Part shown: piece by piece, positions 1 to 4,747 of the stretch | Position numbering within the stretch: position 1 is the stretch's first letter | Layout of the letters: the number at the start of each line of letters is the position of its first letter | Source of the DNA: an uncultured Prochlorococcus sp. | Lineage (GTDB): Bacteria; Cyanobacteriota; Cyanobacteriia; PCC-6307; Cyanobiaceae | Reading direction: 5' to 3' | Assembly: GCA_902564535.1 (NCBI GenBank) | Contig: CACFBG010000001.1 | Coordinates: 144,564-208,563 of the forward strand | Length of the DNA stretch: 64,000 nucleotides | Notes under the pieces: model-generated | Databases searched by the model: none | The model's input: only the letters and a program-made list of their open reading frames with translations | Told to the model about the DNA's origin: nothing | Program-made: the position numbers and the translations under genes

Positions 1-249
1 TTCTCCTATCGACTGCAAAACCTGAGATTCAATATCACGAAAAGCTGTTTCTCCTTCTTTTTCAAATATTTGTGAAATATTCAAGCCAATCAATTGTTCG
101 ATAACAGAATCAGTATCCACGAATCGATATGAAAGTGCCTTTGCCAAAAGTGGGCCAGTAGAGCTCTTACCACTACCCATCATTCCGACCAGATAAAGAT
201 TACGTCCACCAAGTATTTTGATAAGTTCATTTAGAGAAGGAGCAGTCAT
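1..249 (-). CDS. aroK: Shikimate kinase, partial (runs off the window start)
   Basis: Reverse-strand translation from 249: [52 protein letters not shown]..., with P-loop GMMGSGKSS and the shikimate kinase DTD motif. Confidence 0.88.
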
Positions 250-302: not shown

Positions 303-1226
303 ATGACTGAATTCCAATCCCAGTTCAGTCATGGCCATGGCAAAGAGTGTGTGATCACACGAAGGGCATGCTTTTGCGCAAGTCATAGATATTGGCTGCC
401 AGAACTTTCTTCAGATGACAATGCAGCGAGATTTGGACCTTGTGCAATCGCTCCTGGGCATGGTCATAACTATGAGCTAATAGTTTCTATGGTTGGGAGG
501 TTAGATAACTGTGGAATGCTCTTAAACTTATCAGATGTCAAAAAAGCCATCCATAATGAAATAACTTCTCAATTGGATTTTCGCTTTCTTAATGAAACCT
601 GGGAAGAATTTAACATCAACAATCCAAAAGGATGCTTACCTACTACGGAAGCCCTTACACAAGTAATTTGGAATAGACTTAAATCTGAACTACCATTACT
701 TGCAATACGACTTTATGAACACCCTGCCCTATGGGCAGATTATCTAGGAGCTGGAATGGATTCTTATTTAAGTATTCGCAATCATTTTGCGGCAGCACAT
801 CGACTGGCAAAGCCAGAGCTTAGTCAAATAGAAAATGAAAAAATCTACGGAAAATGTGCGCGTCCAAATGGGCATGGTCACAATTATTTAGTAGATATAA
901 CTGTGCGTGGTGAAATTGATAAAAGGACAGGAATGGTTTGTGATCTTTCAGCCTTACAAAGGCTTGTTAATGACTTAGTTATTGAACCCTTTGATCATAC
1001 TTTTTTAAATAAAGATATAGAATATTTCCATACGTGTGTACCCACTGCAGAAAACATTGCTTTACATATTGCTGATCGTTTAGCCGCTCCAATCAAAGCA
1101 ATTGGTGCAAATTTGCATAAAGTAAGACTCCAGGAAAGTCCAAATAATGCCGCTGAAGTTTATGCAGAGAAACCACAACTGGGTGTTCTTACTTCCACAC
1201 TAGAAAAATCCATAGCTTCACAATAA
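303..1226 (+). CDS. Tandem-domain 6-pyruvoyl-tetrahydropterin synthase / 6-carboxytetrahydropterin synthase-like protein
   Basis: 307 aa with two PTPS-like repeats, each carrying C-x(4-5)-GHGHNY ([15 protein letters not shown] and [15 protein letters not shown]). Confidence 0.85.
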
Positions 1227-1233
1227 AATTATT

Positions 1234-1905
1234 TTGAATAAGCCATGGGTGCGACTAGTTCTTGCAATCAGTATTGATGGGCGTCTAGCAGAACAATCTG
1301 GAGGAGAAGCAAAAATTGGAGGTGAAGGTGATAGAAGTGTTTTAGAAGAAAGTCTTGCTTGGGCAGATGGCATGTTAGTTGGTGCAGGAACTATGAGAGC
1401 ACACAAAAATATTTGTTTAATTAAAAAGCCTGAACTAATTCAAAACCGTTTATCTCGAGGGAAAACAAAACAACCTATAGCAATAATAGTTAGCAATAAA
1501 ATATTATCTTCTCCTGAATGGCCATTATTTAATCAACCAATTCAAAGATGGATGCTAACCAAAGAAGAAAATCATCATCAAAATTTATACAAAAAAGAAT
1601 ATGATCGTATAATTTACCTCAAAGAAAGCTGGGATAAAACTTTATCTAGCCTTTACAAATATGGTATTTCAAAGATCGCATTATTAGGTGGTGCAATATT
1701 AGTCTCATCACTAATTAAAGAAGATCAAATAGATGAGCTACAGCTAACAATAAGCCCTAAAGTCTTGGGAGGAAAATATACATGGTTACCTTATGACCAC
1801 TATAATCTTCCAATAGATTTAACTACAGGAAAAGCTTGGTCACTTAACAATGTAAAAAAATTAATTAAAAACGAAGTTATGCTTAGCTATTACAGGAATC
1901 GTTAG
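1234..1905 (+). CDS. RibD C-terminal domain / DHFR-like pyrimidine or pteridine reductase
   Basis: TTG start; RPWVRLVLAISIDGRLA-type start, MLVGAGTMRAH, and LLGGAILVSSLIKEDQIDELQLTISPKVLGG are typical of RibD_C. Confidence 0.8.
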   Translation: MNKPWVRLVLAISIDGRLAEQSGGEAKIGGEGDRSVLEESLAWADGMLVGAGTMRAHKNICLIKKPELIQNRLSRGKTKQPIAIIVSNKILSSPEWPLFNQPIQRWMLTKEENHHQNLYKKEYDRIIYLKESWDKTLSSLYKYGISKIALLGGAILVSSLIKEDQIDELQLTISPKVLGGKYTWLPYDHYNLPIDLTTGKAWSLNNVKKLIKNEVMLSYYRNR

Positions 1906-1924
1906 AGATTTTTAATATAATGCT

Positions 1925-3097
1925 ATGAAAGATATTACAATTCGCTGGCACAAATCAACTGATGAAATTAAGGAGTATATATGGAAAGGTTTCATGAATA
2001 ACAAGAGTAATCCTTTTTTCGAATGGAGTTGGCTTAACCAATTAGAAAAGTCTCATAGCGTAGAGCCTAATACAGGTTGGCAACCATTACATATTTCTCT
2101 ATCGCGCAATGAAAATATAGTCGCAATCGCACCTTTATACCTTAAGGCACATAGCTATGGAGAGTTTATCTTTGATCAAAACTACTATCAACTTGCTTTA
2201 GATCTTGGACTTAAATACTATCCGAAACTCATAGGCATGAGTCCTCTAAGTCCTATAGAAGGATATCGTTTTCTTATTGCACCTAATGAGAATGAAATGG
2301 AAATAACTTTATTAATTATGAAAGCAATAGATAAGTTTGCGAAAAAAAATAATATTCTAAGCTGTAATTTTTTATATGTAGACTCAAATTGGGCAAAAAT
2401 CGCAGAACAAGCTAATTGCGCAAAATGGTTAAATAAGCATAGCATATGGCTAGCAGATGGTAAGCAAAATTTTTCTGATTATTTATCTAGTTTTAACGCA
2501 AATCAAAGGCGAAATATCAAGAGAGAGCGTAAATCATTAATAGATTCTGGCATGCATATTTCTACTTATACTGGAGATCAAATTACTGAGAGTTTGATGA
2601 TAGATATGCATGCTTTTTATGAATTACATTGTTCAAAATGGGGAGTATGGGGCAGCAAATATCTTTCAGAAAGCTTTTTCAAAGCACTAGCTAATTCTCA
2701 TCACAAAAAAAATTTGGTATTATTTAGTGCAAATAATGAAGATTCGAAACATCCTTTGGCAATGTCAATGTGTATCGCCAATGACAACAAGTTATGGGGA
2801 AGATATTGGGGAGCAACTGTAGAAATTAATTGTCTTCATTTTGAATTATGTTATTACTCACCAATATCCTGGGCTTTAAATCATGGAATAGAAAGCTTTG
2901 ATCCTGGTGCAGGAGGGAATCATAAGCTTCGTCGCGGTTTTCAGACTAAGGCTAATATTAGTCTCCATAGATGGTACAACCAAAAAATGGACTATCTCAT
3001 TAGAGAGTGGCTTCAACATTCAAATAAACTCGTTATAGAAGAAATTGAAGCAATAAATAATCAATTGCCATTTACAGCAAAAGCAACTTCCATATAA
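1925..3097 (+). CDS. GNAT-family / peptidogalycan biosynthesis-like acyltransferase (COG3146-type)
   Basis: NPFFEWSWLNQLEKS...GWQPLHISL start; RRNIKRERKSL and FDPGAGGNHKLRRGFQT motifs. Confidence 0.75.
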   Translation: MKDITIRWHKSTDEIKEYIWKGFMNNKSNPFFEWSWLNQLEKSHSVEPNTGWQPLHISLSRNENIVAIAPLYLKAHSYGEFIFDQNYYQLALDLGLKYYPKLIGMSPLSPIEGYRFLIAPNENEMEITLLIMKAIDKFAKKNNILSCNFLYVDSNWAKIAEQANCAKWLNKHSIWLADGKQNFSDYLSSFNANQRRNIKRERKSLIDSGMHISTYTGDQITESLMIDMHAFYELHCSKWGVWGSKYLSESFFKALANSHHKKNLVLFSANNEDSKHPLAMSMCIANDNKLWGRYWGATVEINCLHFELCYYSPISWALNHGIESFDPGAGGNHKLRRGFQTKANISLHRWYNQKMDYLIREWLQHSNKLVIEEIEAINNQLPFTAKATSI

Positions 3098-3112
3098 CAA
3101 ATTGATCAAATT

Positions 3113-3514
3113 ATGTGTTCAAATAATAGTAAAAATAAATTAACAAAATCATTGGAAATTCTGGACAATGAACTATCTAAACGTTTTATCCAGCTTGATC
3201 CCAAGGGTTATTTTTTAATCAAAATTGACTGGGAAACAAAAGAAATCCTAGTCGAACATTTTTCTAATGATCTAGATGAAGAAGGAAGGGCACTAGACCC
3301 TGAGACCGGGGAGCCAATAAAATGCAGTGGAGCTGTAAAGCGCAATCCAATCAATGTATTCAGAGGCAGGAGTGCCAAAGAGGTTGGTATAAAGCTCACA
3401 GAGAATGGGGATTGTAATCTTCTTAGCAGGCTTGAGCATGCTCTTTACCTAGGGAGAGAGCTTCAAAAAGCAGAAGCTTGTCTATTAAACGATGAAAAGT
3501 ATATTCAAGATTAA
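3113..3514 (+). CDS. DUF4346-family protein
   Basis: LDPKGYFLIKIDWETKEILVEHFSND...DPETGEPIKCSGAVKRNPINVFRGRSAKEVGIKL...LSRLEHALYLGRELQKAE resembles DUF4346. Confidence 0.7.
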   Translation: MCSNNSKNKLTKSLEILDNELSKRFIQLDPKGYFLIKIDWETKEILVEHFSNDLDEEGRALDPETGEPIKCSGAVKRNPINVFRGRSAKEVGIKLTENGDCNLLSRLEHALYLGRELQKAEACLLNDEKYIQD

Positions 3515-3674
3515 AATCAATTTAAAAAACGCCCGCTTGTCTCCTTTATCTGATCTAATAGATATAGAAACTTCAAATTACATGGGCATTATTTTTTATC
3601 TTGGTATTGTTGGCTCAGGACTTATTACAGCTTATGTAATTAATAAAATTCTTCGTAAGATTAAATTGATATGA
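3492..3674 (+). CDS. Small hypothetical membrane protein
   Basis: 60 aa ORF with one hydrophobic helix (IIFYLGIVGSGLITAYVI); overlaps the 3' end of the DUF4346 gene. Confidence 0.5.
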   Translation: MKSIFKIKINLKNARLSPLSDLIDIETSNYMGIIFYLGIVGSGLITAYVINKILRKIKLI

Positions 3675-3796: not shown

Positions 3797-4747
3797 ATGG
3801 CCTCCTCACGTCTTAAAAGTCGGAGAAACCAAGAGCAAGGGTCAAAATCATCAAGAATAGCCATCGCTATTCTTGCCACCATAGGTCTTGTAGATACAGG
3901 TTCTATAACCCTAGATCGATGGGGATTAATTGGATCTTTGTCTTGTCCTGGAGGCATGACAGGTTGTGACAAGGTTCTTAATAGCCCATGGGGAACGATA
4001 TTTGAAAATGAAACATTGATTATTCCATTATCATTTATAGGATTTCTAAGTTATTTAATTCTTTTATCAATGGCAATATTGCCATTGATTCTCAATAAAA
4101 ATTTAAATAAAAATAATATTACTAGAAATACTTGGTGGATTTTATTTTATAGTTCATGTGTAATGAGTGCTTTTAGCCTATTTCTAATAGGCTTAATGAT
4201 TTATAAAATTCAAGCTTTTTGTTTCTTTTGTATACTATCAGCAATTATATCAATCTTAATCCTATTTTTGTCAATATTAGGAGGAGCATGGGATAATTTG
4301 GAACAGTTATTTTTTAGAGGGATTTTGCTATCTCTTTCAATTCTCATAAGTAGTTTGATCTGGTCCTCAAATGTTGACCCTAGCCTTTCAATTGCCAATA
4401 ATTCTTCCAATGGGCTGCCGCCTCCTGTACTTTCTCAAAGTAATGTAGAAAAGATTGAATTTGCTAAGTTTTTAACTGCTAAGGATGTTGCTATGTATAG
4501 TGCATATTGGTGTCCTCATTGTCATGATCAAAAGGAACTTTTTGGTCGCAAAGCATATGAAAATTTAAATATCATTGAATGCGCAAAAGATGGTTACAAT
4601 AATCAAAGTGATTTTTGCGATAAAAAAGGAATAAATGTTTACCCATCTTGGGAAATTAATGGAGAAATCAATGAAGGAGTCAAGTCTTTGCAAGAATTAG
4701 CAGAGATAACCGGATATAAAAAGTTTTCAAATAATTTCCAAGATTAA
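3797..4747 (+). CDS. Vitamin K epoxide reductase (VKOR)-thioredoxin-like fusion, disulfide-bond formation
   Basis: Multi-TM domain with CFFC and a C-terminal thioredoxin-like AYWCPHCHDQKELFG. Confidence 0.88.
   Translation: MASSRLKSRRNQEQGSKSSRIAIAILATIGLVDTGSITLDRWGLIGSLSCPGGMTGCDKVLNSPWGTIFENETLIIPLSFIGFLSYLILLSMAILPLILNKNLNKNNITRNTWWILFYSSCVMSAFSLFLIGLMIYKIQAFCFFCILSAIISILILFLSILGGAWDNLEQLFFRGILLSLSILISSLIWSSNVDPSLSIANNSSNGLPPPVLSQSNVEKIEFAKFLTAKDVAMYSAYWCPHCHDQKELFGRKAYENLNIIECAKDGYNNQSDFCDKKGINVYPSWEINGEINEGVKSLQELAEITGYKKFSNNFQD

What the first reader, a model, noticed from the sequence alone, without database searches (positions are those of the whole stretch)
303..3674. Candidate pterin operon: fused double PTPS, RibD-C reductase, acyltransferase, DUF4346 and a micro-membrane protein
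Five same-strand, tightly spaced ORFs begin with two PTPS domains fused in one chain. Next comes a RibD_C (DHFR-fold) reductase, the type used for pterin and deazaflavin intermediates, then a COG3146-type acyltransferase. A DUF4346 protein follows; as I recall, that domain is found with dihydropteroate-synthase-like and methanopterin-related proteins in archaea. Marine cyanobacteria make unusual pterins, and a PTPS product needs a reductase. The grouping suggests a pathway for a modified (possibly acylated) pterin. The acyltransferase link is the weakest part.
Basis: partly seen in the sequence, partly recalled or inferred. Interest (0 to 1): 0.6.

Follow-up and report, generated by a model that had tools for sequence, protein, structure and literature searches.

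The report
Double PTPS paired with DHFR-like reductase
In marine picocyanobacteria a known two-domain pterin-making enzyme is always encoded next to a reductase that, across cyanobacteria, swaps places with dihydrofolate reductase; it is probably the reductase that keeps the cell's pterins (and perhaps folate) reduced, for which most cyanobacteria have had no known gene.

Summary
The five ORFs are real, but they are not one five-gene pathway. The fused double PTPS is the known bimodular cyanobacterial PTPS-II (Kong 2006). The 'micro-membrane protein' is cytochrome b6f PetL (true start 3582). The COG3146 and DUF4346 proteins occur in all 42 complete genomes searched, whether or not the pterin genes are there.

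The firm unit is PTPS-II plus the standalone RibD_C protein. They are neighbours in 35/35 Cyanobiaceae loci (median gap 6 nt), while the other junctions break. This RibD_C is not RibD: the genome has RibD elsewhere, and RibD's substrate motifs (DNPxLT, E before GG) are lost. It instead has Asp33 and Thr172, which align with DHFR Asp27 and Thr113.

In 291 near-complete cyanobacterial genomes it is replaced by true DHFR (FolA). Of 29 genomes lacking it, 18 have FolA; of 262 having it, 11 do (p=4e-14; genus level 3e-8). Of 11 genomes without PTPS-II, 6 lack both RibD_C and FolA, against 5 of 280 with it (p=2e-7).

Best reading: an NADPH-dependent, DHFR-type dihydropterin reductase working with PTPS-II, possibly also the missing cyanobacterial DHFR. 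No activity was shown; all of this is comparative.

The parts
303..1226 (+). Bimodular PTPS-II (fused double 6-pyruvoyl-tetrahydropterin synthase). Domain 2 (about residues 152-288) keeps every catalytic residue; domain 1 keeps zinc ligands and pterin anchor but has lost the catalytic His (Asp-His becomes Asp-Phe).
   Evidence: PF01242 two stretches; domain 2 matches mammalian PTPS at 1e-30; residue conservation in 51 orthologues
1234..1905 (+). Standalone RibD_C protein (TTG start), proposed DHFR-type dihydropterin reductase
   Evidence: PF01872; model fold matches M. mazei Rib7, Rv2671 and T. maritima DHFR; residues D33 and T172; exchange with FolA
1925..3097 (+). FemAB_like / COG3146 N-acyltransferase-type protein; ancient neighbour of RibD_C, not specific to the pterin unit
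   Evidence: PF04339 6.6e-125; in 42/42 complete genomes; next to RibD_C in four other families
3113..3514 (+). DUF4346 protein; conserved across cyanobacteria, function unknown
   Evidence: PF14251; 42/42 complete genomes; confident model (pLDDT 89) without a PDB match
3582..3674 (+). PetL, cytochrome b6f subunit (30 aa); not part of the pterin unit
   Evidence: NF008824 above cut-off; conserved only from codon 31 of the 60-aa ORF
1..249 (-). N-terminal part of shikimate kinase (aroK), divergent from PTPS-II; a conserved flank (35/35 loci), not part of the unit
   Evidence: open-ended ORF; the name aroK rests on the reading of the sequence, no family search was made

Best explanation
The core is a two-gene pterin unit: bimodular PTPS-II followed after 7 bases by a RibD_C-fold reductase. 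PTPS-II converts dihydroneopterin triphosphate to 6-pyruvoyl-tetrahydropterin (shown by others for the Synechococcus PCC 7942 orthologue; inferred here). The RibD_C protein is an NADPH-dependent DHFR-type enzyme that reduces 7,8-dihydropterins back to tetrahydropterins. Asp33 would hold the pterin ring as DHFR Asp27 does, with Thr172 in the place of DHFR Thr113 (inferred). It thus keeps the pool made by PTPS-II reduced and may also reduce dihydrofolate. FolA can take its place, so lineages that gain FolA lose it. The genes that follow (FemAB_like, DUF4346, PetL) are conserved neighbours, not steps of this pathway.
For: (1) PTPS2-RibD_C adjacency in 35/35 family loci, median gap 6 nt in 29; same order in G065 of another family. 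(2) Exchange with FolA in 291 genomes, nearly all at least 95% complete: RibD_C absent: 18 FolA+, 11 FolA-; present: 11 FolA+, 251 FolA-; Fisher p=3.8e-14, genus level 3.0e-8. Ten genera in nine families show FolA without RibD_C. (3) Co-loss with PTPS-II: 6 of 11 PTPS2-less genomes lack both, against 5 of 280 PTPS2+ ones, p=2.5e-7; three of those five (G114, G181, G235) carry another RibD_C type with D33/T172. (4) RibD hallmarks lost (W27/T29, DNPxLT at 57-62, E151) and D33 (45/45) and T172 (43/45) present; HHalign aligns the family with cyanobacterial FolA over 163 columns, pairing D33 with the FolA Asp and T172 with its Thr. (5) Fold: Rv2671 with bound dihydropteridine (4xt4) TM 0.80; T. maritima DHFR matched by fold and by sequence profile, 2e-9. 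(6) Full RibD elsewhere in G000 (C8:35877-36431).
Against: No biochemistry. The best structural match is archaeal Rib7, a riboflavin-pathway reductase that also has the Asp. Eleven genomes keep both FolA and RibD_C. Six genomes have FolP but neither FolA nor RibD_C, so some unknown enzyme must reduce dihydrofolate there. Five of 11 PTPS2-less genomes keep RibD_C. Genomes are not independent samples; only a crude genus-level correction was made. In most families PTPS-II and RibD_C are far apart, and RibD_C-FemAB adjacency has the wider distribution.
Confidence: 0.52

Rival explanations
1. RibD_C is the missing folate DHFR of cyanobacteria and nothing more; its place beside PTPS-II reflects loose clustering of pterin genes.
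For: Prochlorococcus DHFR is listed as a missing gene (PMC1971073 Table 2); cyanobacteria lacking FolA are noted (PMC4531292 citing Myllykallio 2003); FolA exchange; precedent of Rv2671 as DHFR analogue.
Against: Co-loss with PTPS-II and perfect adjacency to it are unexplained; six genomes keep FolP yet lack FolA and RibD_C.
Confidence: 0.2
2. RibD_C reduces the side chain of 6-pyruvoyl-tetrahydropterin, replacing sepiapterin reductase.
For: Adjacency to PTPS-II; no genome has a sepiapterin reductase over the curated cut-off.
Against: FolA-bearing genomes drop RibD_C but keep PTPS-II, and FolA is not known to reduce ketones; SDR candidates near 1e-20 occur in most genomes.
Confidence: 0.08
3. 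RibD_C is a second riboflavin-pathway reductase (RibD/Rib7 type).
For: Pfam RibD_C; best fold match M. mazei Rib7.
Against: NCBIfam hits fall below every RibD/Rib7 cut-off; bifunctional RibD is present in the same genome; substrate motifs DNPxLT and EGG lost, Thr in place of the RibD/Rib7 Phe or Cys; separate clade with support 0.999; exchange with FolA would be meaningless.
Confidence: 0.04
4. One reading: all five genes make a modified, perhaps acylated, pterin.
For: The order PTPS-RibD_C-FemAB-DUF4346 is conserved in Cyanobiaceae and in G065; RibD_C-FemAB adjacency in four more families.
Against: FemAB_like and DUF4346 are present in all complete genomes, including G038 and G040, which have neither PTPS-II nor RibD_C; PetL is a b6f subunit; junctions after RibD_C break often.
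Confidence: 0.05
5. RibD_C acts on an unrelated substrate; the statistical links come from shared ancestry and genome streamlining.
For: Genomes are related; no full phylogenetic correction; eleven FolA+ genomes keep RibD_C.
Against: Association holds at genus level (p=3e-8) over nine families; in the 60-genome set PTPS-II, FemAB_like and DUF4346 are kept in every FolA+ genome, so the loss is specific to RibD_C; DHFR-like residues.
Confidence: 0.11

Closest known systems
Bimodular bPTPS-II of cyanobacteria (Kong et al. 2006, FEBS Lett 580:4900; cited in PMC3546692, discussed in PMC5041015)
   Same: Two fused PTPS domains, CxxxxxHGH motif in both, pan-cyanobacterial
   Different: Nothing essential. 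Added here: domain 1 has lost the catalytic His in all of 51 orthologues (45 Phe, 3 Tyr, 3 others), while domain 2 is fully conserved
Rv2671 of M. tuberculosis (RibD_C-fold DHFR functional analogue; PDB 4xrb, 4xt4, 4xt6)
   Same: RibD_C fold, standalone, structure solved with dihydro- and tetrahydropteridine rings bound, TM 0.80 to the model
   Different: About 20% identity; the cyanobacterial family lost the Glu before GG that RibD and Rib7 have, is widespread across a class, replaces FolA there and is paired with PTPS-II
FolA dihydrofolate reductase (PF00186)
   Same: Fold; GxxT and GG motifs; Asp and Thr at the pterin site; largely complementary distribution
   Different: No PF00186 match; about 220-260 aa, with insertions relative to the 160-200 aa FolA
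RibD / archaeal Rib7 pyrimidine reductases
   Same: RibD_C fold; Asp33 shared with M. mazei Rib7 Asp33
   Different: DNPxLT / DDPxLT and EGG substrate motifs lost; Thr172 instead of Phe or Cys; no deaminase domain
DHFR salvage of 7,8-dihydrobiopterin in animals (general knowledge)
   Same: A DHFR-type enzyme keeps the PTPS-derived pterin reduced
   Different: Different protein family; here genetically coupled to PTPS

Membership tests
bimodular PTPS-II | two PTPS domains in one chain | tested here: met
   PF01242 two stretches; 280 of 291 genomes hold the full-length form
bimodular PTPS-II | CxxxxxHGH motif and catalytic Cys/Asp/His/Glu plus three zinc His | tested here: met
   domain 2 invariant in 51/51; domain 1 lacks the His
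bimodular PTPS-II | PTPS activity | not testable with these tools
   shown by others for Synechococcus PCC 7942 PTPS-II (PMC5041015)
RibD / Rib7 pyrimidine reductase | curated family cut-off | tested here: not met
   TIGR00227 92.7 bits (cut-off 150), TIGR01508 74.3 (186), TIGR00326 56.7 (156)
RibD / Rib7 pyrimidine reductase | substrate motifs D-N/D-P-x-L-T and E before GG | tested here: not met
   near-invariant in 14 cyanobacterial RibD proteins; absent in the window protein and nearly all of 45 standalone proteins
FolA (PF00186) | Pfam DHFR_1 match | tested here: not met
   no PF00186 match in G000; window protein matches only RibD_C in Pfam
FolA (PF00186) | pterin-site carboxylate (Asp27) and Thr113 equivalents | tested here: met
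   D33 45/45, T172 43/45; HHalign pairs them with FolA Asp and Thr
DHFR-like function | NADPH-dependent reduction of dihydrofolate or dihydropterin | not testable with these tools
   only comparative evidence
Rv2671-type DHFR analogue | fold similarity to Rv2671 | tested here: met
   4xt4 TM 0.80, E 1.5e-14
Rv2671-type DHFR analogue | same clade as Rv2671 | not tested
   Rv2671 itself was not placed in the tree
PetL | NF008824 above cut-off | tested here: met
   27.7 bits against cut-off 25; 33 conserved loci
FemAB_like / COG3146 | PF04339 over full length | tested here: met
   6.6e-125, profile positions 3-368 of 369
DUF4346 | PF14251 over full length | tested here: met
   1e-27, 1-86/86

The most novel reading that the evidence does not exclude
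This RibD_C family is the long-missing dihydrofolate reductase of FolA-less cyanobacteria, including Prochlorococcus. It serves both folate and PTPS-II-derived tetrahydropterins, so a large share of the ocean's primary producers runs folate and pterin reduction on a RibD-derived enzyme rather than on FolA.
Probability: 0.35. Interest if true: 0.78.

Novelty: new variant of a known kind. Interest (0 to 1): 0.6.

Why it matters
Prochlorococcus and most other cyanobacteria have folate biosynthesis but no recognised DHFR, a gap listed in the literature since 2003-2007. A single protein family now has (a) exchange with FolA across the class, (b) DHFR-like residues, and (c) genetic coupling to the cell's PTPS. 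If confirmed it fills a missing step in a central pathway of major ocean phototrophs, bears on why cyanobacteria tolerate trimethoprim, and shows how a riboflavin-pathway fold was turned into a pterin reductase. It would also correct the riboflavin annotation that such genes are likely to carry.

Tried and rejected
Micro-membrane protein as novel: rejected, it is PetL. RibD_C as plain RibD: rejected on a separate RibD in the genome and on lost motifs. ThyA as hidden cause of the FolA pattern: only a weak ThyA-like match occurs (mostly in ~510-aa ORFs), and 8 of the 15 or more FolA+ genomes tested, among them G041, G042, G044, G134, have none. Sepiapterin reductase profile: uninformative because SDRs are everywhere. 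RibD_C neighbours outside the family (histidine kinase, RNase III-like and oxidoreductase-like, judged by eye) gave no functional hint. Folate-only reading: weakened because the six genomes lacking PTPS-II, RibD_C and FolA still have FolP. DUF4346 structure: no PDB match. No phage copies of RibD_C. Promoter/terminator scan no better than shuffles. Alignment-based scan of named genomes could not run; a PTPS scan gave one named relative, Prochlorococcus sp. AG-673-M19, with the same gene order. Literature searches found no report tying this RibD_C to DHFR, but only open-licence papers were searched.

Full report
OBSERVATION. The ORFs are as described. Families: PTPS twice, RibD_C, FemAB_like (COG3146), DUF4346. 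The fifth ORF is PetL: NF008824 above cut-off over residues 31-60; the first 30 residues have no relatives while the last 30 have relatives in 33 loci, so the gene is 3582-3674. Upstream and divergent lies an ORF read as aroK; downstream is a VKOR-family protein. The host is a picocyanobacterium of the Prochlorococcus family (GC 35%; PTPS 68% identical to Prochlorococcus sp. AG-673-M19, which has the same gene order). G000 is an incomplete genome (75%).

GENE ORDER. In 35 Cyanobiaceae loci PTPS2 and RibD_C are always adjacent (35/35), with a median gap of 6 nt where ORF ends could be read (29 loci). The later junctions are looser: RibD_C-FemAB within 300 bp in 25/34, FemAB-DUF4346 28/33, DUF4346-PetL 20/29. 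Outside the family PTPS2 usually stands alone. RibD_C-FemAB adjacency recurs in G053, G046, G059 and G047, the last with DUF4346 too, and G065 has the whole order PTPS2-(92-aa ORF)-RibD_C-FemAB-DUF4346.

PTPS. This is the bimodular PTPS-II already described from cyanobacteria (Kong et al. 2006, listed in PMC3546692; activity of the Synechococcus PCC 7942 PTPS-II stated in PMC5041015). In 51 orthologues domain 2 keeps all catalytic residues. Domain 1 keeps its zinc His (50/51), mostly Cys (46/51) and the Glu anchor (50/51), but the catalytic His is Phe in 45 and never His. Domain 1 is thus probably a non-catalytic partner (inference).

RIBD_C IS NOT RIBD. A full-length RibD is encoded elsewhere in G000 (C8:35877-36431, open frame 385 aa). 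Against 14 cyanobacterial RibD C-domains the standalone family has lost W27/T29, D57-N58-P59-x-L61-T62 and E151. It has D33 (45/45; Ala/Ser in RibD) and T172 (43/45; Phe in RibD). M. mazei Rib7 shares D33 but has DDPSLT, EGG and Phe at 172. HHalign with 20 cyanobacterial FolA proteins gives 66% probability over 163 columns and pairs D33 with the FolA Asp (18/20 Asp), T172 with its Thr (16 Thr, 3 Ser), and the GxxT and GG motifs. The RibD control gave under 1%, but that alignment was shallow and not an ideal control. The AlphaFold model (pLDDT 84) matches Rib7, Rv2671 with bound dihydropteridine (TM 0.80) and T. maritima DHFR. The family is monophyletic (0.999) apart from RibD; a second cyanobacterial type (G058, G114, G181, G235) with D33 and T172 but EGG is its sister.

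EXCHANGE WITH FOLA. In 60 relatives, strong FolA hits occur in G041, 42, 44, 48, 49 and 52; RibD_C is missing in G038, 40, 41, 42, 44, 49 and 52. In the same genomes PTPS2, FemAB and DUF4346 are kept wherever FolA is present, which is a specificity control. In 291 class genomes (all but G000 at least 95% complete), calling FolA at E<1e-30 and RibD_C at E<1e-25: RibD_C absent, 18 FolA+ and 11 FolA-; present, 11 FolA+ and 251 FolA-; p=3.8e-14; genus level (10, 5, 5, 109; counted by hand from the tables) p=3.0e-8. The 'present' class includes about 25 genomes whose only copy is of the second type. Weak PF00186 hits (20-31 bits) were taken as a different DHFR-like family. ThyA does not explain the pattern.

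COUPLING TO PTPS-II. Eleven of the 291 genomes lack the double PTPS at E<=1e-60. Six (G038, 40, 122, 229, 258, 265) also lack RibD_C and FolA, against 5 of 280 PTPS2+ genomes; p=2.5e-7, or 1.6e-8 if the second RibD_C type counts. Independent PF01872 searches confirm that these six hold no standalone RibD_C of this size. No PTPS2-less genome has FolA. All six have FolP, so they make dihydropteroate without FolA or RibD_C. A folate-only role would not predict this; a role in keeping PTPS-derived pterins reduced would.

INTERPRETATION. The data fit a DHFR-type dihydropterin reductase that works on the PTPS-II pool and can be replaced by FolA; it may also be the DHFR listed as missing in Prochlorococcus (PMC1971073). 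Shown: adjacency, exchange, co-loss, residue signature, fold. Inferred: chemistry, substrate, physiological role. PTPS activity in this organism is inferred from the Synechococcus work.

LIMITS. Presence calls rest on score gaps (about 1e-27 to 1e-100 for the families, 1e-15 to 1e-21 for RibD). The residue numbering of DHFR (Asp27, Thr113) is from general knowledge of the E. coli enzyme. Literature search covered open-licence papers only. No experiment was possible.

FEMAB_LIKE, DUF4346, PETL. The first two are near-universal in cyanobacteria irrespective of the pterin genes. DUF4346 has a confident model (pLDDT 89) but no PDB match; its Pfam name (PterinBD-DUF4346) and its likeness to the ends of TIGR00284 and MtrA keep a pterin link open but untested. 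PetL is a known photosynthesis subunit.

Noticed in passing
window 3797-4747 (+): VKOR-family protein with a C-terminal thioredoxin-like part, a disulfide-forming fusion, directly after PetL. In most relatives a MiaB/RimO-type radical SAM gene (Pfam UPF0004, Radical_SAM, TRAM) lies between petL and VKOR on the opposite strand; it is missing here.
   Followed up: partly
G038, G040, G043, G049, G062, G135, G153, G159, G218: ThyA-like domain matched only in part, mostly inside ORFs of about 500-540 aa (359 aa in G062), in cyanobacteria; among them are the two PTPS2-less genomes G038 and G040.
   Followed up: no
G038, G040, G122, G229, G258, G265: Cyanobacteria with FolP but neither FolA, standalone RibD_C nor PTPS-II; their dihydrofolate reductase is unknown.
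   Followed up: partly
L140-L143 (G058, G114, G235, G181): A second cyanobacterial standalone RibD_C type with D33 and T172 but an EGG motif, sister to the window's family; it may be the counterpart in that family.
   Followed up: partly
window 303-760, PTPS domain 1: Conserved loss of the catalytic His in the first PTPS domain of the cyanobacterial orthologues, while zinc ligands and the pterin-anchor Glu stay: a conserved non-catalytic half.
   Followed up: yes
G057 C1:4778433-4778591: 536-aa open frame whose match to DUF4346 (residues 78-133) suggests an archaeal-type DHPS-like protein with a DUF4346 end in a cyanobacterium.
   Followed up: no
L189 6159-6437 (-): Unassigned 92-aa ORF between PTPS2 and RibD_C in G065; no Pfam match.
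   Followed up: partly
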